A DNA stretch of 29,090 nt, from IMG/VR virus record IMGVR_UViG_3300032282_004537, positions 1 through 29,090 of that record; one strand, written 5' to 3'. A program made the translations under genes and the position numbers. The notes below the pieces were generated by a model that was not told the DNA's origin, did no database searches, and saw only the letters and a program-made list of their open reading frames with translations. The stretch's first letter is position 1. Each line of letters begins with the position of its first letter. Of the stretch, positions 17,013-26,661 are shown in pieces. The stretch comes from a virus.

Positions 17013-17789
17013 ATGACAAGCGGCGTATATATCATAAAAAATAAAATTAATAATAAAGTTTATATAGGAAGTTCAATTCATATTCCTAAAAGATGGAAAG
17101 AACACATAAGACATTTAGACAGCAATGAACATACTAATCAATATTTACAAAATTCTTGGAATCAAAATGGAAAAGACAATTTTGAATTTTTAATAGCCGA
17201 AGAATGTGATATAGAAAATTTATTGATAGTAGAACAAAAATGGCTTGATACTACAAAATCATATGAGCCAGAAAATGGCTATAATATTTGTCAGTATGCG
17301 GGCAACACTCTTGGAAGGTTTCATACAGAAGAAGCAAGAAAGAAAATTAGTGAAAACCACCACGATGTTAGTGGAGAAAATAACCCTATGTTTGGCGTTC
17401 CTTCACCAAATTTTGGTAAAAGACACAGCGAAGAAACAAAAAATAAAATATCTCAAAAACTAAAGGGTAAGAAATCTTGGAATGAAGGAAAAACAAAAGA
17501 AAATGATCTTTTACTAAAAAAACATTCAGAAAGAATGACTGGTAAAAATAATCCTTTTTATGGGAAAACCCTTTCTGAAGAAAGAAAAGATCAATTAAGA
17601 AAAAATAAAAGTGGTGAAAATAATTCCTTGTCTAAATTGACTTGGGAAAAGGTTAGGCAAATAAGAAAACTAAACAAAGATGGCTTGTCTAATCGCAAGA
17701 TTGCTGCTATGTTTGATGTATCTTCAACTACCATCTGTAGTATTGTAAATAATCTATCTTGGAAAGAGGAAAATAATGGAACGAATTAA
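17013..17789 (+). CDS. GIY-YIG homing endonuclease with NUMOD3 repeats
   Basis: A free-standing intron-type endonuclease of the I-TevI / Seg kind. The GIY-YIG domain is at ~1-95: SGVYIIKN, VYIGSS, R27 of KRWKEH, and E74 (LLIVEQKWLD). It is followed by DNA-binding NUMOD3 modules (GENNPMFGV, GKRHSEETKNKISQ, GKNNPFYGKTLSEERKDQLR) and a C-terminal helix-turn-helix of the NUMOD1 kind (GLSNRKIAAMFDVSSTTICS). Its 3' end overlaps the dnaE start by 14 bases. Such enzymes cut the matching site in phages lacking them and spread by repair. Position next to dnaE, and just after a dnaE 5' remnant, suggests dnaE is the target region. Confidence 0.9.
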   Translation: MTSGVYIIKNKINNKVYIGSSIHIPKRWKEHIRHLDSNEHTNQYLQNSWNQNGKDNFEFLIAEECDIENLLIVEQKWLDTTKSYEPENGYNICQYAGNTLGRFHTEEARKKISENHHDVSGENNPMFGVPSPNFGKRHSEETKNKISQKLKGKKSWNEGKTKENDLLLKKHSERMTGKNNPFYGKTLSEERKDQLRKNKSGENNSLSKLTWEKVRQIRKLNKDGLSNRKIAAMFDVSSTTICSIVNNLSWKEENNGTN

Positions 17790-20700
17790 GTCAAAAATTA
17801 AGTTCATCGGACTCCATTGTCATGACGGCTTCTCACTTTTTGATGGACTTGGATTGCCGCAAGAACATATGGATTTTGCTTATTCAAATGGAATGGATGC
17901 CATGGCTATAACAAACCATGGCAACATGAATTCTCTTGCATATCAAGTTCTACATGCCAAGAAAATGAAAAAGGAAGGAAAAGATTTCAAGCCGATCTAT
18001 GGCTGTGAAATGTATTTTCATCCTTCTATTGCTGCTTGGCGGAAAGATAAGGAAGAAATTGAAAAAACAACAAAAGCAAAAAAAGAGGACGAAGAGATCA
18101 CAGGAGCGATTGTTGAGAACGAAGAAGAGACAAAGAAGACTAAGAAGAGTATCCTCAATCGGCGTTCCCACCTTGTTCTTCTCGCACAAAATCAGAAAGG
18201 TCTGAATAATCTTTTTACTCTTATCAGCAAGAGTTTTTCAGACGAGAATTACTATCGTTTTCCTCGTATTGACTATGAAATGTTGAAGCAATTCAACGAA
18301 GGTATTATTGCGTCTTCTGCCTGTCTTGGTGGAGTATATGCTACTGATTTTTGGGAGAATTGGGATAATGGTGAAGAAGCAATTCTAAATGCTATGCGTG
18401 AAACATCACGCAAGATGATTGATGTATTTGGTGATCGTTGGTATGGCGAAGTTCAGTGGAATGGTATTCCAGAACAGCACAAATTAAATCAACTGATTAT
18501 TCGTGTATGCGAAGAGTTTGGTATTAAAGTTATTTCTACTGGTGATAGTCATTATCCATCTCCCGGAGCTTGGAAAGACCGAGAAATTTACAAGAAACTT
18601 GGTTTTCTTGGTAATGGCAAAACAATTGATACTACCCTTCCAGATAGTATTGATGACATGGAATATACACTTTATCCCAAGAACGGTGATGAAATGTGGC
18701 AGGCATACAAGAAGTATTCTGCCAAGTGTGGTGTAAAGTATAATGACGATTTTGTCCTCAAAACAATTGAGGAAACATGGGATATTGCCTTCAATCGTAT
18801 TGAAAACTTTATTCCAGATAATACTGTTCGTCTGCCAAATTTTATTCTTCCCGAAGGTAAAACAGCAGAAGAAACACTTGATCAACTCGCAGAAACAGGT
18901 TTGCGAGATATGAAGAAGTGGAGCAATAAAGAATATCATGATCGCCTTCTACGAGAACTTGATGTAATCAAGGAGCGTGGATTTGCCAAGTATTTCTTGA
19001 CAATGAAAGCGATTTCTGATCGTGCAAATGAAAGTTATATTACTGGTCCCGGTCGTGGTTCTGCGGCAGGTGCTCTTGTATCTTATGTTCTTGGAATTAC
19101 TCAAGTTGATCCAATTAAGCATGGCCTTCAATTTGAGCGTTTCCTTTCAAAGACAGCAACAGATTATCCCGATATTGATTATGATGTAAGTGATGCTATG
19201 GGATTGAAACAGAACCTTATTGATGAATGGGGCAAGAATAATGTTGTTCCAATTACAAATTGGAATACACTACAGCTGCGTTCACTAATCAAGGATATTA
19301 GTAAGTTCTATGGCGTTGATTTCCAAGAGGTAAATGCAGTAACAAATAAAATGTTGCTTGAAGCAACTCCACTTGCGAAAGCGGAGCATGGAATTACTGC
19401 TGGTGTATATAATCCAACATTCGAAGAGGTAATGAAATATTCACTATCCCTTCAAACATTCCTCGGTCAGTATCCGCATATCAAAACCCATATTGAACAA
19501 TTACATGGTTCAATCCGTTCAGCATCTCGTCATGCTGGCGGTATTGTTGTTGGTGAAAATCTTGATAAATGGATGCCGCTAATCAATAGCAAGGGTGTTC
19601 GCCAAACACCTTGGAGTGAGGGTCAGAACGTCCGTCACCTTGAACCTATGGGTTTTATCAAGTTTGACGTACTTGGTCTTGAAACTTTGAATATGATGGA
19701 GAAAGCAATTCAGCATGTTCTCCGACGTCATCATGGAATTAAAAATCCAGAATTCAAAGATGTGAAGCAATTCTATTCCAAACATCTACATCCTGATGTC
19801 TTGGACATGAATGACAAGAATGTATATGAGAATATTTTTCATGCTGGTAAATGGGCAGGAATTTTCCAATTTACAGAAAGTGGAGCACAAAATTTCTGTC
19901 AGAAAGTAAAGCCAAACAATATCGTTGATATTTCTTCTATTACTTCTATTTTCCGTCCCGGTCCTCTATCTGCCGGGGTAGATAAATCATTTGCCGAAAG
20001 TAAGCATGATCCGGATAGTGTTGTGTATGAACATCCACTAATCAAAGAGGCTACAAGTGAAACATACGGATACTTGGTTTTCCAAGAACAGATTGCCTTA
20101 CTTGCTCACAAACTTGGTCGTGACATTTCTCTTGATGAAGGTAATTCTCTCCGAAAAGTCTTGACCAAGAAAGGAACAGGAAAGGAGGCAGAAGTTAAAG
20201 AAAAACTACACGATAAGTTTATTAATGGTTGTGTAGATAAAGGTCTTGGTAAAGAGATTGGTGAGAAACTGTGGCAGAAGTTTATTTACTTCTCAGGATA
20301 CGGTTTCAACAAGTCTCATGCTGTATCTTATTCTATTATTTCTTTCCAGTGTGCTTGGTTGTACAATTATTATCCAAGCGAATGGCTTGCTGCCTATCTT
20401 GACAGTCAGCCAGAAACAAAGAAAGAAAAGGCAGTAAATATCGTAAAGGCCGCTGGATATAATGTTCAAGGCGTAGATATTAATAAGTCTGGAAAAGTAT
20501 GGGAAATTAGTGAAGATGGAAAAACATTAATTCAGCCACTTTCAGCCATCAAGGGTGTAGGTGATGCTGCTATTAAAGAGATCCTTGATCATAGACCGTT
20601 TAAAACGATTGAGGACTTCCTTTTCCATCCTCGTGTAAGTTATAGTAAGTTGAATAAGAAGAATGTTGATGCTCTTTGTAGGAGTGAAGCACTTCTGTCA

Positions 20701-21195
20701 TTAATGGATAGTCGCTTTACTGGAGGTAAGCATTTCTGGTCTGCTGTCGCTGTTGATCGTCCTCGTAAACCGGATAATCTCCTTGAGAATATTAAAACAT
20801 ATGCAGCAGAAGGAGACTTTACGCGAGATGAAAAAATTCTTAACACTTTGGAGTTGACAGGAGTTTATCCAATCAATATGATAGTCTCCGAGGATGTTCA
20901 GAAGAAACTTGCAGAAAAAATGATCCCACCTCTAGGTGAATTTGATCAAGAACTTGGTATTTGTTGGTTCATTCCAAAAGGTATTGAGAAGAAAACAACG
21001 AAGAAAGGTACACAATATCTAATCGTTGAGGCGATTGATGAAACTAATATTGTGACCAAGATTAAGTGTTGGAAATTTGATCCAAAGAAAGATATAATTC
21101 ATCTCAATCATCCTTATGTTGCAAGGTTGGAATATCAAGAGGATTGGGGTTTTTCAGTTCGTTCTATTAACAAAGCATTTAAGCTTATTGGGTAA
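17776..21195 (+). CDS. dnaE: DNA polymerase III alpha subunit (family C polymerase)
   Basis: The replicative polymerase, 1139 aa. Domains in order: PHP (GLHCHDGFSLFDG, ITNHGN, YGCEMYF, GDSHYPSP), with most metal-type His residues kept; palm with GPGRGSAAGALVSYVLG near 422 and catalytic D466 and D468 in PDIDYD; third Asp D631 in KFDVLGL; fingers and beta-binding region with GYGFNKSHAVSYS; helix-hairpin-helix AIKGVGDAAIKEIL near 922; and a C-terminal OB fold to ~1130. A Lys/Glu-rich insert lies near 93-125. It is slightly shorter than E. coli DnaE. ATG 17776 follows AAAGAGGAAAATA, inside the endonuclease gene. A DnaE in place of a family A or B phage polymerase is unusual for T4-like neighbours. 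Confidence 0.95.
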   Translation: MERIKSKIKFIGLHCHDGFSLFDGLGLPQEHMDFAYSNGMDAMAITNHGNMNSLAYQVLHAKKMKKEGKDFKPIYGCEMYFHPSIAAWRKDKEEIEKTTKAKKEDEEITGAIVENEEETKKTKKSILNRRSHLVLLAQNQKGLNNLFTLISKSFSDENYYRFPRIDYEMLKQFNEGIIASSACLGGVYATDFWENWDNGEEAILNAMRETSRKMIDVFGDRWYGEVQWNGIPEQHKLNQLIIRVCEEFGIKVISTGDSHYPSPGAWKDREIYKKLGFLGNGKTIDTTLPDSIDDMEYTLYPKNGDEMWQAYKKYSAKCGVKYNDDFVLKTIEETWDIAFNRIENFIPDNTVRLPNFILPEGKTAEETLDQLAETGLRDMKKWSNKEYHDRLLRELDVIKERGFAKYFLTMKAISDRANESYITGPGRGSAAGALVSYVLGITQVDPIKHGLQFERFLSKTATDYPDIDYDVSDAMGLKQNLIDEWGKNNVVPITNWNTLQLRSLIKDISKFYGVDFQEVNAVTNKMLLEATPLAKAEHGITAGVYNPTFEEVMKYSLSLQTFLGQYPHIKTHIEQLHGSIRSASRHAGGIVVGENLDKWMPLINSKGVRQTPWSEGQNVRHLEPMGFIKFDVLGLETLNMMEKAIQHVLRRHHGIKNPEFKDVKQFYSKHLHPDVLDMNDKNVYENIFHAGKWAGIFQFTESGAQNFCQKVKPNNIVDISSITSIFRPGPLSAGVDKSFAESKHDPDSVVYEHPLIKEATSETYGYLVFQEQIALLAHKLGRDISLDEGNSLRKVLTKKGTGKEAEVKEKLHDKFINGCVDKGLGKEIGEKLWQKFIYFSGYGFNKSHAVSYSIISFQCAWLYNYYPSEWLAAYLDSQPETKKEKAVNIVKAAGYNVQGVDINKSGKVWEISEDGKTLIQPLSAIKGVGDAAIKEILDHRPFKTIEDFLFHPRVSYSKLNKKNVDALCRSEALLSLMDSRFTGGKHFWSAVAVDRPRKPDNLLENIKTYAAEGDFTRDEKILNTLELTGVYPINMIVSEDVQKKLAEKMIPPLGEFDQELGICWFIPKGIEKKTTKKGTQYLIVEAIDETNIVTKIKCWKFDPKKDIIHLNHPYVARLEYQEDWGFSVRSINKAFKLIG

Positions 21196-22007: not shown

Positions 22008-22495
22008 TGTTGTTAGAATATACTACCGTACATGAAAATGTTTTCAAACCAACGAGAGCAAATCCAAGTGACGTTGGTCTTGATCTCTTCTTTTCTCCCG
22101 ATGTAAAACACGGAGAACATGATCAAGAAAAGAATATACCACTTGGTAGTATTGTAATCATGCCAAGTCAATGTGTAAAAATCAGAACCGGTTTGCGCTT
22201 TGCTGTACCACATGGATTTTGTTTAGAAATTAAGAACAGAAGTAGCGTAAGTAGTAAAAAAGAACTTCTTGTTGGTGGTGGTGTTATTGATCCCGGTTAT
22301 GATGGTGAAGTTGTAATCATCATGCATAATGTTGGTCGTAATCCACAAATTATTAAACCAGGAGACAAAATTGCACAAGCAGTATTGTTTCCAGTAGTTC
22401 ATGTTAGACCAATATTGGTCGATGAGAAAAAATTATATGCTGATAAAATCGCCATGAGCGATAGAGGTAATAATGGATTTGGTTCAACAGGCTGA
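22007..22495 (+). CDS. dut: dUTP pyrophosphatase (trimeric dUTPase)
   Basis: Hydrolyses dUTP to dUMP, keeping uracil out of phage DNA and feeding ThyX. All five family motifs are present in order: DVGLDLF (motif 1), NRSSVS (2), GGVIDPGYDGEVVI (3), PGDKIAQAVLFPV (4) and a C-terminal arm RGNNGFGSTG (5). Length 162 aa is normal for the homotrimer. ATG 22007 is 7 bases after AAGGTG. ATG 22001 in the same frame is too close to the SD. The last 23 bases overlap the HNH endonuclease gene, so the conserved arm motif and the start of a selfish gene share DNA. Confidence 0.95.
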   Translation: MLLEYTTVHENVFKPTRANPSDVGLDLFFSPDVKHGEHDQEKNIPLGSIVIMPSQCVKIRTGLRFAVPHGFCLEIKNRSSVSSKKELLVGGGVIDPGYDGEVVIIMHNVGRNPQIIKPGDKIAQAVLFPVVHVRPILVDEKKLYADKIAMSDRGNNGFGSTG

Positions 22496-23006
22496 TAATA
22501 GTATTTCTGTCCAAGAAATATGGAAGCCGGCAATAAAAAATAATAAAGTTCTACCTGGCTATGAAGTTTCTAATCTTGGTAAAATTAGAAACAAAAAAGG
22601 TATTATCTTAAAATGTCAAGATGAAGTGCCATCAGGCAAAGGTGCTTTCAAAGGTGCCAGACAATCGATAGGATTATCAATACCAGAAAATTTATATGAA
22701 GATTATAAATACAAGAAAACAACACCAAATCGTAAATCTTGTAAGATTACAATCTCAGTTCATCGTCTAATCATAGAAACTTTTAAACCTATCGATGATT
22801 ATCCACCTATTCCAAAACACGAATGGGATGTAACTCCAGAAAGTGCTAAAAGATTAATAAGAGAATGTTGTGTTGTAGATCACATAGATAATAATCCATT
22901 AAACAACAACATTAATAATTTACGCTGGGTTTCATTAAAAGAAAACCAAACATTTATAAAAAAACATTTATTCAAAAAAGAAAGTATTGGTGAAAACATA
23001 TGCTAA
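22473..23006 (+). CDS. HNH homing endonuclease (NUMOD4 + HNH)
   Basis: A 177-aa free-standing endonuclease. NUMOD4 at ~15-45 reads EIWKPAIKNNKVLPGYEVSN followed by LGKIRN. The HNH part reads VDHIDNNPLNNNINNLRWVS near 138-157. It starts inside the last codons of dut (AGAGGTAATA before ATG 22473) and overlaps the methyltransferase start by 7 bases, so it has inserted without breaking either neighbour. Likely cleaves dut or adjacent sequence in related phages lacking it. Separate from the GIY-YIG enzyme. Confidence 0.88.
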   Translation: MDLVQQADNSISVQEIWKPAIKNNKVLPGYEVSNLGKIRNKKGIILKCQDEVPSGKGAFKGARQSIGLSIPENLYEDYKYKKTTPNRKSCKITISVHRLIIETFKPIDDYPPIPKHEWDVTPESAKRLIRECCVVDHIDNNPLNNNINNLRWVSLKENQTFIKKHLFKKESIGENIC

Positions 23007-23488
23007 AGAAAGATAGAGATGTTCTTTTTAGTCACAAGAGTGACGAATGGTCGACCCCACAGCACATTTTTGATAAACTAAATCAAAAGTACAATTTCAC
23101 ACTTGATCCGGCAAGTGATGGAACAAATAATAAATGTGTTAAACATTATACGATGAAAGAAAATGGATTATCCCAGAGTTGGCATGGTGAAACTGTGTTT
23201 GTCAATCCACCATATAGTAAAATATATGATTGGGTTGGTAAAGCATATCACGAAGTTGTGAGAGGAGATACAACTGTGGTAATGCTACTGCCTGCTAGAA
23301 CTGATACAAAATGGTTTCATGAATTTTGTATTGAACCAATACTTGTTAAAAGTATAACATTTATTAAAGGCAGATTGAAATTTGGTGGTAATAAAAATTC
23401 AGCACCATTTCCATCTATGATTGTTGAATTTTGTCATCCAAAAAAACCACCATCACAGCCAGATATTCTTACTATGAGTAATAAATGA
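23000..23488 (+). CDS. Phage-type DNA N6-adenine methyltransferase
   Basis: Matches the phage Dam-like family. DEWSTPQHIFDKLNQKYNFT leads to LDPASD (SAM-binding region, ~35-40), then the catalytic NPPY at 69-72 (FVNPPYSKIYDW) and VMLLPARTDTKWFHEF. A C-terminal FIKGRLKFGG follows. It would methylate adenine at N6, protecting phage DNA or marking it. At 162 aa it is a normal single domain with no target-recognition insert. It starts inside the end of the HNH gene, with only a weak SD. Adenine methylation implies that normal adenine is present in the DNA, which bears on the PurZ question. Confidence 0.88.
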   Translation: MLKKDRDVLFSHKSDEWSTPQHIFDKLNQKYNFTLDPASDGTNNKCVKHYTMKENGLSQSWHGETVFVNPPYSKIYDWVGKAYHEVVRGDTTVVMLLPARTDTKWFHEFCIEPILVKSITFIKGRLKFGGNKNSAPFPSMIVEFCHPKKPPSQPDILTMSNK

Positions 23489-23763
23489 AACCAATAAAAG
23501 ATAAATCAAAATCATACAAGGATAAAGAAAAAGACCTCAAACAGAAATTAAATATGTTTGATCGTATTCCAGATCATTGCTTGACTTGTAACTCTCCGTT
23601 TGATAGAAAGAATAAGGAGCAAGTTCAGTCGTGGTTTGTTGTTGTAAAAAACGCTGACAATAAAGTAAATCTTTATTGCCCTTCATGTTGGGGTAAAGCA
23701 ACATCGTTGGTTGAACAAGTTATTAATGGAGAAAAAAATGCTACAGACAGCTCTGACGTTTGA
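23485..23763 (+). CDS. Small zinc-ribbon-like protein, 92 aa
   Basis: Basic, helical N-terminus (MKPIKDKSKSYKDKEKDLKQ), then HCLTCNSPFD and LYCPSCWGKA: two CxxC knuckles about 36 residues apart that would hold one zinc. The start overlaps the methyltransferase stop (ATGA). Its 3' end overlaps the IMPDH gene start by 26 bases. No function can be given. Confidence 0.6.
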   Translation: MKPIKDKSKSYKDKEKDLKQKLNMFDRIPDHCLTCNSPFDRKNKEQVQSWFVVVKNADNKVNLYCPSCWGKATSLVEQVINGEKNATDSSDV

Positions 23764-24571
23764 TGATGTACTTCTTGTGCCAAAATACAGTTCAATTACG
23801 AGCCGAAGCGAAGTTGATCTAAAACTTAATCTAGATCCAACAAGACAACTTTCTCTTCCTGTTATTTCATCTCCGATGGATACGGTTACAGAAGTAGAAA
23901 TGGCTGTAACTATGTCCAAACATGGTGGTCTTGGAATTATACATCGTTATAATTCTATTCAAGAGCAAGTAAAACTTGTTTGTGATGCAAAACAAGCAGG
24001 TGCCAAACTTGTTGGTGCTGCTGTTGGTTCAACAGGCGATTTCTATGAAAGAGCATTTGAACTTATAAAATTTGATATTGATGTAATTTGTGTTGATGTT
24101 GCACACGGACATCACCAGAATGTAAAAGAAGCAATACAAAAGATTAAAAATCATCCAAGTCATTATAAGTTCCATCTTATGGCTGGAAATGTTGCTACAG
24201 GAAAAGCTTTTCAAGATTTAAGTGATTGGGGAGCTGATAGTATCCGTGTAGGTATTGGTGGTGGTTGTTTCGTCCCAGGAACTCTTGTAAATACTGAAAA
24301 TGGTTTGAAGAAAATTGAAGAAGTAAAAGTAGGTGATAAAGTTTTCAGTCATACAGGAAAACTACAATCTGTTGTTGATACTCTTGTGTTTGATAGAGAC
24401 GAAGAAATTGTATCTATTAATGGTATTGATTGCACTAAAAATCACGAGTTTTATGTAATTGACAAAGAAAATGCCAGTCGTGTAAATGAAGATAATATTC
24501 ATCTATTTGCCCGATGGGTTCATGCAGAAGAGCTTGATATGAAAAAACATCTACTTATTGAATTGGAGTAG
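23738..24571 (+). CDS. guaB: IMP dehydrogenase-like N-terminal half fused to N-intein
   Basis: Residues 1-176 are the first part of an IMPDH/GMP-reductase TIM barrel: FDDVLLVPKYSSI, SSPMDTVTE, GGLGIIHRYNS, DVAHGHHQ, MAGNVATG and VGIGGG. The CBS domains usual in IMPDH are absent. Directly after GIGGG begins a 101-residue N-intein (C177, CFVPGT) and a stop codon. ATG 23738 follows GGAG by 6 bases. A longer in-frame frame from TTG 23711 lies in the previous gene. The enzyme becomes whole only if this chain trans-splices with the product of 24684-25313. IMPDH makes XMP from IMP and leads to guanine nucleotides. GMP reductase is the alternative. Confidence 0.9.
   Translation: MLQTALTFDDVLLVPKYSSITSRSEVDLKLNLDPTRQLSLPVISSPMDTVTEVEMAVTMSKHGGLGIIHRYNSIQEQVKLVCDAKQAGAKLVGAAVGSTGDFYERAFELIKFDIDVICVDVAHGHHQNVKEAIQKIKNHPSHYKFHLMAGNVATGKAFQDLSDWGADSIRVGIGGGCFVPGTLVNTENGLKKIEEVKVGDKVFSHTGKLQSVVDTLVFDRDEEIVSINGIDCTKNHEFYVIDKENASRVNEDNIHLFARWVHAEELDMKKHLLIELE
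24266..24568 (+). mobile_element. N-terminal half of a split intein (IMPDH-1 type)
   Basis: 101 residues from the nucleophile C177 of the host protein to the stop. CFVPGTLVNTENGLKKIEEV is the first block. TKNHEFYV is block B with the TxxH motif, and FARWVHAEELDMKKH lies near the end. The sequence closely recalls the IMPDH-1 split intein reported from environmental phage-like sequences. No endonuclease domain is inside. Insertion is at GIGGG/SICST, two residues before the catalytic Cys. Confidence 0.92.
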
Positions 24572-24694
24572 GTACAAAATGCAGGAACAGCACAACTGAA
24601 TGGTTATAAATTATATCGCGTTAGAGAAGATGAAAATAGAAAAGTAGATTTTCTAAAAGAGATCAAACAAATAAGGGAGTTTTATGAAGTTTAA
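24572..24694 (+). pseudogene. Open-frame relic between the intein halves, possibly a homing endonuclease tail
   Basis: In the frame of the N-half and directly after its stop, 40 codons stay open to TAA 24692. They include LNGYKLYRVREDENRK and FLKEIKQIREFYEV. The shape (L-x-GYK-x-x-RxRE-E, then a Lys-rich helix) looks like the C-terminal end of Vsr-like (very-short-patch-repair) homing endonucleases, the type associated with fractured intein genes. No start codon or upstream domain remains. The tail overlaps the C-half start and its SD. The identification is tentative. Confidence 0.5.
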
Positions 24695-24803
24695 ATTAAA
24701 AGAAATAACCTCTATTGAGACAAAACACTATAAGGGTGTCGTACATGATCTTACCGTAAATGAAGATCATTCTTATAATATTCGTGGAACAATTGTTCAT
24801 AAC
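24684..24803 (+). mobile_element. C-terminal half of the split intein
   Basis: 40 residues starting MKFKLKEITSIETKHYKG, with block F (VHDLTVNEDHSYN) and block G ending VHN, followed by Ser as the +1 extein residue. This His-Asn-Ser junction is the standard splice end. It pairs with the N-half at 24266-24568. Confidence 0.92.
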
Positions 24804-25313
24804 TCTATCTGTTCAACACGACTACAAACAGGTTTTGGTGTTCCTAATCTTGCTGCTATATTTGATTGTGTTCAGACACAGGCATATAAGAGTGGAAAAA
24901 CAAAACTTATTGTTGATGGTGGTATTAAGAATAGTGGAGATATGGTAAAAGCTTTTGCTGCTGGTGCTCATTTTGTTATGTGTGGTTCATTACTTGCCGG
25001 AACAGATGAAAGTCCAGGTGAAACTTTTGTTGATGGTAATGGCGTAAAGATGAAGAATTACCGTGGTATGGCTTCAAGAGAAGCACAAACAGATTGGCGC
25101 GGTAAAAGTTCAGCACCAGAAGGTATTTCTACGTTCATTAAACACAAAGGTTCAGTAAACCCTATCCTTGATGATATTCGTGGAAACATCCAAAGTGGAT
25201 TTTCATATGCCGGTGCAAGAAACTTCACAGAACTATCAGGTAAGGTTGAGTTTATTCAGCAGACAAGTGCTGGTGCTGCTGAAAGCTTTACACATATCTT
25301 ACATAAAAAATGA
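24684..25313 (+). CDS. guaB: C-intein fused to the IMP dehydrogenase-like C-terminal half
   Basis: Residues 1-40 are the C-intein and 41-209 the C-extein. The extein starts S41-I42-C43, completing the IMPDH loop GSICSTR with catalytic C43. Then TGFGVPNLAAIFDC, IVDGGIKNSGDMVKAFAAGA, MCGSLLAGTDE, YRGMASREAQ, APEGIS and SGFSYAGA follow. The flap region is short and lacks the clear Arg-Tyr pair of typical IMPDH. The joined enzyme would be 345 residues, close to GMP reductase length. ATG 24684 follows AAGGGAG. The stop overlaps the start of the next gene (ATGA). Confidence 0.9.
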   Translation: MKFKLKEITSIETKHYKGVVHDLTVNEDHSYNIRGTIVHNSICSTRLQTGFGVPNLAAIFDCVQTQAYKSGKTKLIVDGGIKNSGDMVKAFAAGAHFVMCGSLLAGTDESPGETFVDGNGVKMKNYRGMASREAQTDWRGKSSAPEGISTFIKHKGSVNPILDDIRGNIQSGFSYAGARNFTELSGKVEFIQQTSAGAAESFTHILHKK

Positions 25314-25648
25314 GTGAAGAACAAAATCCACCTCAAGGTGCAAAACCATGCCAAGTATGTTTCGAAACAATAGACGGTGAATATGCTCGTCTGATGATAA
25401 AATTAAGACATGAAGAACTCACTAAAAAAGAGTTCTTTATTGCTATTATTAACGGTTTTCTTGAAGATGAACCAAACTTAAAAGAATTCCTAAAAGCATA
25501 TCGAAAGAGTAAAGGTTATGCTCAATGGAAAGAAGAAGTGCTTGACAAGGAAATAGAAGATGGTAAAATTGAGATGCGTAAATTCGGTCTAGATAAAGAT
25601 GAAATAGACGATATTTACGATCTTTTTGATGATGAGGCAGGATTATGA
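25310..25648 (+). CDS. Unknown acidic protein, 112 aa
   Basis: Begins MSEEQNPPQGAKPCQVCFET with one CxxC and continues as a helical, Glu/Lys/Asp-rich chain (EFFIAIINGFLEDEPNLKEF) to an acidic end (DIYDLFDDEAGL). It sits between guaB and the purA-like gene with ATGA overlaps on both sides, so it is translated with them. No domain recognised. The context suggests only co-expression with purine genes. Confidence 0.6.
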   Translation: MSEEQNPPQGAKPCQVCFETIDGEYARLMIKLRHEELTKKEFFIAIINGFLEDEPNLKEFLKAYRKSKGYAQWKEEVLDKEIEDGKIEMRKFGLDKDEIDDIYDLFDDEAGL

Positions 25649-26661
25649 ATTATAAAAGATTAAATGCTGATATTATTATTGGGCTAGATCATGGTGACGA
25701 GGGAAAAGGTAAAGTAACCAATTCATTACTAAAAAATGGTGAATATACTCACTGCATTAGGTACAATGGAGGTCATAATGCCGGCCACACCATTTACAAT
25801 AATGGAAAGAAAGTTGTAACACATATAGTTCCTTCTGGTGTATTACAAGGTGTAAAATCTATTATTGGTCCTGCTTGTGTTGTATCTCCAACACTCTTAA
25901 AAAAGGAAATAGAAGATTTAGAAGAAGCAGGTGTAGAAGTAAAAAAACATCTTTATATAGATAAACGATGTAATGTTATTACTCCTCGTCACCTTGAGGA
26001 AGACGGAAAAGATACAAAAATAGGTACAACAAGAAAAGGTAATGGTCCAGCATATCGCGACAAATATGATCGCAAAGGTTTAAGATTTGGCGATTTACCA
26101 GCAGATCCAGATTTTAAACTAACTGATATGTACGAGGAATTCTTTAATAATGATCACGTTGTTGCTCTTTTTGAGGGAGCACAAGGTTTCGGATTAGATA
26201 TTGATTGGGGAGATTATCCATACGTTACATCATCAACTTGTACGGTTGGTGGAGCAGTAATAAATGGACTTCCACCAAAATCAATCCGTAAAGTGTATGG
26301 AATAGCCAAAGCATACCAAACATATGTAGGAGCGAAGAAATTTCAGCCAGAAGGCGAAATATTCAATAAAATTCGTGAAATTGGTATGGAATATGGCGCT
26401 ACAACAGGAAGACCAAGACAAGTAAATTATCTTGATTTAGATTTCCTTGTTAAATCAACAAACATTAATGGTGTCTCGCATCTTATTATTAATAAAACTG
26501 ATATTTTACAAGAAGTTAATGAATGGAAGATGTATAAAGACGGTCAATTAATTGATTGTAAATATGAAGACAAGTTTAAGGATTTAATCAAAACAGCACT
26601 TTTAAGAAAATGTGAAGAATTAGAACAAGTTCATTTTTCATATTCAGCGGAAGGTATTTGA
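25645..26661 (+). CDS. purA: Adenylosuccinate synthetase-family enzyme (PurA / PurZ0-like)
   Basis: A short member of the family, 338 aa, like archaeal PurA and phage PurZ rather than the ~430-aa bacterial form. Phosphate loop GDEGKG at 17-22 keeps D18, the catalytic Asp, and H48 (NAGH) is the second catalytic residue. RKGNGPAYRDKYDRKGLRFG, EGAQGFGLDID, YVTSSTCT and the Asp-binding ATTGRPRQVNYLD follow. NKTD at 283-286 is the guanine-recognition motif, so GTP is the expected phosphate donor. PurA makes adenylosuccinate from IMP. PurZ enzymes act on dGMP to make the 2-aminoadenine precursor and usually lack the Asp, and later forms lack the guanine motif. This one therefore fits PurA or the GTP-using PurZ0. 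Confidence 0.85.
   Translation: MNYKRLNADIIIGLDHGDEGKGKVTNSLLKNGEYTHCIRYNGGHNAGHTIYNNGKKVVTHIVPSGVLQGVKSIIGPACVVSPTLLKKEIEDLEEAGVEVKKHLYIDKRCNVITPRHLEEDGKDTKIGTTRKGNGPAYRDKYDRKGLRFGDLPADPDFKLTDMYEEFFNNDHVVALFEGAQGFGLDIDWGDYPYVTSSTCTVGGAVINGLPPKSIRKVYGIAKAYQTYVGAKKFQPEGEIFNKIREIGMEYGATTGRPRQVNYLDLDFLVKSTNINGVSHLIINKTDILQEVNEWKMYKDGQLIDCKYEDKFKDLIKTALLRKCEELEQVHFSYSAEGI

What the first reader, a model, noticed from the sequence alone, without database searches (positions are those of the whole stretch)
24572..24694. Relic of a homing endonuclease between the split-intein halves
The 112-base gap is not random: in the N-half frame, 40 codons stay open, with LNGYKLYRVREDENRK and a Lys-rich helix. 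This looks like the end of a Vsr-like endonuclease, the class found between halves of fractured intein genes. It would show a fractured gene after its endonuclease was mostly deleted, leaving only a tail that overlaps the C-half RBS.
Basis: partly seen in the sequence, partly recalled or inferred. Interest (0 to 1): 0.75.

Follow-up and report, generated by a model that had tools for sequence, protein, structure and literature searches.

The report
Endonuclease relic inside split gene
A virus gene for IMP dehydrogenase is cut in two by a self-splicing protein element, and the short stretch between the halves is the leftover tail of a DNA-cutting "homing" gene that used to move the element around and was later deleted.

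Summary
Window 23738-25313 is an IMP dehydrogenase gene broken by a split intein. The 112-nt gap (24572-24683) is what is left after a 716-bp deletion inside a free-standing homing endonuclease gene. Related viral contig L002 has an intact 263-aa endonuclease at this place; the gap holds its last 35 codons (229-263) with 96 of 97 bases identical, plus 15 bases of its leader. Two more close relatives and one more distant one also keep a full gene there. The endonuclease family's best match by sequence profile and by fold is I-Bth0305I (EDxHD/Vsr-like). The window relic has lost the start codon, its hairpin-covered ribosome site, the DNA-binding part and the conserved nuclease core, so it is dead; it probably survives because it carries the ribosome site of the C-half. 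The intein-plus-endonuclease unit is ~99% identical between window and L002 while other shared DNA is ~80%, which points to recent homing. Similar relics occur in 7 of 30 distinct IMPDH inteins compared, and on a tree they need about 6 separate changes. The finding is real and well explained: a decay stage of a known kind of element.

The parts
23738..24265 (+). IMP dehydrogenase, N-extein (ends ..RVGIGGG, just before the catalytic-Cys loop)
   Evidence: Pfam IMPDH E 7.3e-53, profile 1-179 of 345; NCBIfam TIGR01302
24266..24571 (+). N-half of split intein (CFVPGTLV..HLLIELE, 101 aa) and TAG stop
   Evidence: Hint_2 match; 99% identical to L002; Cys1 and TKNH visible in the sequence
24572..24586 (+). 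15-nt remnant of the leader of the deleted endonuclease gene, identical to L002 4841-4855
   Evidence: blastn blocks, gap sequences, region table
24586..24587 (.). deletion junction: 716 bp present in L002 (4856-5571, 1-nt ambiguity) is missing
   Evidence: the two blastn blocks share window base 24586 and leave L002 4856-5570 uncovered; gaps 828 vs 112 nt
24587..24694 (+). relic of the homing endonuclease: last 35 codons (residues 229-263 of P0001) and its TAA stop
   Evidence: 96/97 bases identical to L002 over 24587-24683; HMM 39.1 bits, 0/200 shuffles; leave-out tests
24673..24679 (+). Shine-Dalgarno AAGGGAG of the C-half, inside the endonuclease relic, 4 nt before ATG
   Evidence: sequence
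24684..24803 (+). C-half of split intein (MKFKLKEI..GTIVHN, 40 aa); its first 11 nt overlap the endonuclease reading frame
24804..25313 (+). IMP dehydrogenase, C-extein (SICSTR.., carries the catalytic Cys) and stop
   Evidence: Pfam IMPDH E 4.8e-48, profile 177-345 of 345
24212..24868 (.). tract about 99% identical to L002 (8 mismatches), abruptly more diverged upstream: the transferred unit with short flanks
   Evidence: mismatch list and region table; 300-nt tiles

Best explanation
The gap is the deletion scar of a homing endonuclease gene. A mobile unit made of N-intein, free-standing EDxHD-type endonuclease gene and C-intein sits at the catalytic loop of IMP dehydrogenase; the two gene halves are translated separately and joined by protein trans-splicing, so the host gene survives. 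The unit moved recently between virus lineages by homing (inferred from the identity tract). Before or after that transfer (order not resolved) a 716-bp deletion removed the endonuclease's hairpin-covered ribosome site, start codon, zinc-finger/NUMOD3 DNA-binding part and the conserved nuclease core. The last 35 codons stayed because they overlap the C-half start and carry its ribosome site, which IMP dehydrogenase needs. The relic is not translated as such (no ATG, GTG or TTG in frame after the N-half stop) and the element can no longer cut its target by itself. Shown: the split gene, the parent gene in relatives, the deletion, loss of the core, the identity tract, similar relics elsewhere. 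Inferred: trans-splicing, homing as the transfer process, selection as the reason why the tail stayed.
For: Full gene at the same place in L001, L002, L003 and L093; tail 96/97 bases identical to L002, leader 15/15, 1-nt overlap at the junction; HMM and leave-out tests; intact protein: NUMOD3 in 15 of 15 and DUF559 in 9 of 15 aligned homologues, PDB best match I-Bth0305I by profile and by fold; E171, D199, E209, H216, D223, K226 invariant in 15 of 15 and all upstream of the retained residue 229; element 98.7-99.0% identical against at most 95.0% (median 80.3%) in 83 other 300-nt tiles shared with L002; the N-extein of the window is closer to the uninterrupted allele L004 (88-96%) than to L002 outside the tract (79-81%); endonuclease stop lies 4-50 nt inside the C-half frame in 16 of 16 distinct intact loci; 7 of 30 distinct IMPDH inteins are relics, needing 6 changes on the tree.
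Against: The window is a single metagenome contig, so the junction rests on one assembly; the exact junction was not found in another viral contig. Splicing and cutting are not shown by experiment. The retained tail (97 nt before the ATG) is longer than a ribosome site needs, and three lineages manage with 17-88 nt and no detectable relic. High identity just beside the insertion site is partly expected, because the IMPDH active-site loop is conserved even in empty alleles.
Confidence: 0.94

Rival explanations
1. The junction is a chimera of assembly or amplification; the real genome carries the intact endonuclease.
For: One metagenome contig; 1-nt overlap at the junction; no second copy of the junction among viral contigs.
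Against: Six other distinct lineages show the same kind of relic, three of them in two contigs each (L109/L129, L111/L112, L132/L133); the window's flanks differ from L002, so it is not simply that genome broken.
Confidence: 0.05
2. The tail is a working peptide, for example added to the N-half by amber (TAG) read-through, and is kept by selection on the protein.
For: 40 codons open in the N-half frame; none of 30 other ORFs of 120 codons or more in the window ends in TAG.
Against: The four other short relics lie in other frames (L109 +2, L111 +1, L121 +2, L132 +1) and L121 has a stop inside the tail; L001 and L003 have a stop as the fifth codon after the TAG; no tRNA in the window.
Confidence: 0.03
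3. The gap is an ordinary leader with a chance open frame and no endonuclease history.
For: AT-rich, lysine-rich sequence; no Pfam or PHROG match of the relic alone.
Against: Near-identity with the endonuclease tail in L002; 0 of 200 shuffles reach its HMM score.
Confidence: 0.01

Closest known systems
Fractured gene with split intein IMPDH-1 (Dassa et al. 2009, doi 10.1093/nar/gkp095; paper not held, content recalled; title seen in reference lists)
   Same: Same host gene and, as recalled, the same insertion site and intein type; gene halves in separate reading frames with a free-standing endonuclease between them in sister loci.
   Different: Here the endonuclease has been reduced by deletion to a 35-codon tail.
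I-Bth0305I, founder of the EDxHD homing endonucleases (PDB 3r3p)
   Same: Best match of the intact sister endonuclease by profile and fold; NUMOD-type DNA-binding region joined to a catalytic domain (passages of PMC3943268).
   Different: The sister enzymes lie between split-intein halves, not in a group I intron (recalled); the window relic has no catalytic core.
Homing cycle of inteins and introns (PMC1654191, passages)
   Same: After fixation the endonuclease decays while splicing stays under selection.
   Different: The endonuclease is a separate gene overlapping the C-half, so decay tends to leave a 3' tail.
Hairpin-controlled homing endonuclease genes of T4-type phages (PMC2988022, passages)
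   Same: In sister loci L094-L096 a strong hairpin covers the endonuclease ribosome site.
   Different: Split-intein setting, other nuclease family; no late promoter tested.

Membership tests
Fractured gene with split intein | Host gene in two reading frames that together cover the whole protein | tested here: met
   Pfam IMPDH 1-179 and 177-345 of 345
Fractured gene with split intein | N-half ends in N-intein, C-half begins with its own start codon and C-intein, splice-site residues present | tested here: met
   Cys1, TxxH, HN|S visible in the sequence; Hint match, alignments
Fractured gene with split intein | Free-standing endonuclease between the halves (common, not universal) | tested here: not met
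   Only a relic in the window; intact in L001-L003 and L093
Fractured gene with split intein | Protein trans-splicing | not testable with these tools
   Needs expression of the halves
EDxHD (Vsr-like) homing endonuclease | Sequence and fold relation to I-Bth0305I | tested here: met
   For the intact sister protein: 3r3p E 5.3e-8 (profile), top by Foldseek, but at E 0.011 only; AlphaFold model pLDDT 84.5, pTM 0.43
EDxHD (Vsr-like) homing endonuclease | Conserved acidic/His core in the window copy | tested here: not met
   E171, D199, E209, H216, D223 of the sisters are upstream of residue 229, the first one retained; hence a relic, not a member
EDxHD (Vsr-like) homing endonuclease | Site-specific cutting of the empty allele | not testable with these tools
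   Biochemistry needed

The most novel reading that the evidence does not exclude
The overlap is an anchoring device: because the endonuclease's 3' end is at once the ribosome-binding leader of the essential C-half (overlap in 16 of 16 distinct intact loci), the selfish gene can be crippled but hardly ever removed cleanly, so decay follows the same path again and again and leaves 3' tails (7 of 10 distinct split lineages that lack an intact endonuclease still show one). The 83-125 nt kept in five of these would then be a translation-initiation module of the C-half, not mere debris.
Probability: 0.35. Interest if true: 0.6.

Novelty: new member of a known kind. Interest (0 to 1): 0.52.

Why it matters
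It catches the homing cycle of a split-intein gene in parts that can be compared base by base: empty alleles (L004 and others), invaded alleles with an intact endonuclease (L002), an invaded allele whose endonuclease has been deleted with little change since (this window), and versions without any detectable relic. It explains where the leader in front of the C-half of such endonuclease-less split inteins (the type used in biotechnology for fast splicing) can come from, and it gives a simple test of whether gene overlap slows the loss of a selfish gene.

Tried and rejected
Relic as chance reading frame: rejected by relatives and shuffles. Relic as expressed peptide or read-through product: judged unlikely on frames, internal stop and relatives. 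Pfam and PHROG on the 39-residue relic: nothing. Junction pattern in viral contigs: none. N-intein profile in bacterial/archaeal genome contigs: none. DNA search of annotated phages with the intein region: only short low-scoring matches; the intact endonuclease matches annotated phages mainly through the NUMOD3/zinc-finger part. Hairpin over the endonuclease start as a general rule: only partly supported (leader z < -2 in 7 of 16 distinct intact loci, mean -1.84, against 3 of 16 and 0 of 16 in two control stretches). In one search no relic was detected for L100 (2.0 bits, 11 of 200 shuffles as high), L101 and L106/L107.

Rows dropped before counts: of 62 loci, L137-L155 (19) were not carried further (N side not IMPDH in the listing; the script was limited to L094-L136); of the 43 others L114 (contig ends before the C-half) and L129 (N-intein cut by the contig end; its gap equals that of L109) were dropped from the tree, the window was added, and 12 near copies were collapsed (42 to 30 rows). 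L134 was added by hand as a contiguous intein. L170 (two split inteins) was found through the C-intein search and is not in the counts. L122 counts as intact by length of its frame, but its nuclease core is unclear, and it was left out of the structure alignment (15 of the 16 distinct intact loci used). The weakest relic is L111/L112 (13.8 and 9.5 bits, both 0 of 200). On the tree only 3 relic changes are forced by well supported branches.

Full report
WHAT IS THERE. Window 23738-25313 encodes IMP dehydrogenase in two pieces. The N-half (23738-24571) covers Pfam IMPDH positions 1-179 and the C-half (24684-25313) positions 177-345 of 345. The N-half ends in a 101-residue N-intein with a TAG stop; the C-half begins with its own ATG, a 40-residue C-intein ending HN, then SICSTR, the loop with the catalytic cysteine (role of the cysteine recalled). 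Between the frames lie 112 nt (24572-24683).

THE PARENT GENE. Two scans of viral contigs gave three close relatives with the same split intein, L001, L002 and L003, whose gaps are 828 nt (lengths) and hold frames of 271, 263 and 271 codons. The last 35 codons of the L002 frame are the window's gap. Blastn gives two blocks, window 23481-24586 with L002 3753-4855 and window 24586-25664 with L002 5571-6647: a 716-bp deletion with one base of overlap at the junction. Over 24587-24683 window and L002 agree in 96 of 97 bases and over the leader remnant in 18 of 18 (stop codon included). In L002 the endonuclease runs in another frame than the N-half; the deletion length brought it into the N-half frame.

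WHAT THE GENE WAS. The intact protein has NUMOD3 motifs and a DUF559 domain; among 15 aligned homologues from IMPDH gaps NUMOD3 is found in 15, DUF559 in 9, Vsr in 1. Against all PDB sequences the profile's best match is 3r3p, the catalytic domain of I-Bth0305I (E 5.3e-8; next 3hrl 1.3e-4); a predicted model (pLDDT 84.5, pTM 0.43) also finds 3r3p first, at the modest Foldseek E of 0.011. I-Bth0305I exemplifies the EDxHD homing endonucleases (passages of PMC3943268); a 2025 paper calls the group EDxHD/Vsr and cites the fractured-gene paper of 2009 for it (passages of PMC12350094). Columns E171, D199, E209, G212, H216, D223 and K226 are invariant in the 15 homologues; the relic starts at residue 229. 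So the window copy has lost its start, DNA-binding part and core.

HOW IT WAS SWITCHED ON, AND OFF. In L094-L096 (the contigs of L002, L001 and L003 again) the endonuclease's Shine-Dalgarno lies in the stem of a strong hairpin (GCCTCCTAwATACATTAGGAGGC), like the RNA structures that cover ribosome sites of T4 homing endonucleases (passages of PMC2988022). The deletion removes this hairpin. Across the 16 distinct intact loci the leader is more structured than two control stretches (mean z -1.84 against -0.62 and -0.54; 7 of 16 under -2), so the feature is suggestive, not universal. In 16 of 16 distinct intact loci the endonuclease stop lies 4-50 nt inside the C-half frame; in window and L002 the overlap is 11 nt, and the C-half's AAGGGAG is inside endonuclease codons. 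That is the plainest reason why the tail could not go (inference).

MOBILITY. Window and L002 differ at 8 positions from 24212 to 24868. In 300-nt tiles the element is 98.7-99.0% identical, while 83 other shared tiles have a median of 80.3% and a maximum of 95.0%. Outside the tract the window's N-extein is nearer to L004, an uninterrupted allele (88-96%), than to L002 (79-81%). L001 and L003 show the same pattern over N-intein (98.0%), the part of the gap compared (115 of 115) and C-intein (120 of 120) against 83% in the N-extein. This is what homing with short co-converted flanks leaves behind, though conserved active-site codons beside the insertion make the flank lengths uncertain. Whether the deletion came before or after the transfer is open.

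IT IS NOT ALONE. Profiles of the N- and C-intein brought 62 and 16 loci. After dropping loci as listed under Tried and rejected, 30 distinct IMPDH inteins (window included) were classed: 16 split with a long endonuclease frame, 7 split with a relic, 3 split without a detectable relic, 4 contiguous. An HMM of 17 intact endonucleases scores the relic gaps 39.1 (window), 32.6 (L109/L129), 13.8 and 9.5 (L111, L112), 29.3 (L121), 31.9 (L130), 62.8 (L131) and 30.7 bits (L132/L133), each with 0 of 200 shuffles as high, and finds nothing in L100, L101, L106/L107. L121 carries a stop inside the tail. On a maximum-likelihood tree the relic state needs 6 changes (bootstrap range 5-6; at least 3 forced by well supported branches). 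In five of the seven relics (window, L109, L111, L121, L132) the part matching the endonuclease reaches about 83-125 nt upstream of the C-half start (from alignment ends; 97 nt for the window); L131 and L130 keep more.

KNOWN OR NEW. The homing cycle predicts this decay (passages of PMC1654191), fractured genes with split inteins and endonucleases are known (Dassa 2009, not held, recalled), and IMPDH-1 is a fast split intein in use (passages of PMC7090010). My searches of the held library listed no paper that I recognised as describing endonuclease relics in split-intein gaps; one paper mentions endonuclease domain remnants with an intein in a phage nrdD gene (passages of PMC3653736). The key 2009 paper could not be read, so I do not claim priority. 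I file the locus as a new member of a known kind, in a decayed state; the recurrent 3'-tail relics are the part that may be new.

Noticed in passing
L170:891-3654: An IMPDH-like gene broken into three frames by two split inteins: the middle frame is C-intein 1, a 10-residue extein SACTTRFMTG holding the catalytic-Cys loop, and N-intein 2; a 235-codon frame without a Pfam match follows before the last piece.
   Followed up: partly
window 24569-24571 and homologous loci: The N-half stop codon is TAG in 13 of 16 distinct loci with an intact endonuclease but in 2 of 10 without one; background TAG is 22 of 182 stops, and 0 of 30 in the window itself. Not corrected for relatedness; no explanation.
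   Followed up: partly
L001:214-2329: DNA polymerase III alpha of this relative is also fractured: C-intein at 911-1012 preceded by an endonuclease-like frame; L001 and L003 are about 99% identical over the following part of that gene. The window's copy (17776-21195) is one frame.
   Followed up: partly
window 17013-17789: Free-standing GIY-YIG endonuclease with NUMOD3 motifs directly before the DNA polymerase gene.
   Followed up: no
window 22473-23003: HNH_3 endonuclease with a NUMOD4 motif overlapping the end of a dUTPase-like frame (Pfam; dUTPase recognised by eye).
   Followed up: no
L100 gap (88 nt): May keep the opposite end of an endonuclease, its ribosome site and first CxxC (GGAGG..GTG TAT TGT TTT ATT TGC), but the score is not significant (11 of 200 shuffles).
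   Followed up: partly
L102, L113, L134, L136: Contiguous inteins without a long insert at the same IMPDH site; L113 is close to the split L110 in the tree, so splitting or re-fusion can be studied.
   Followed up: no
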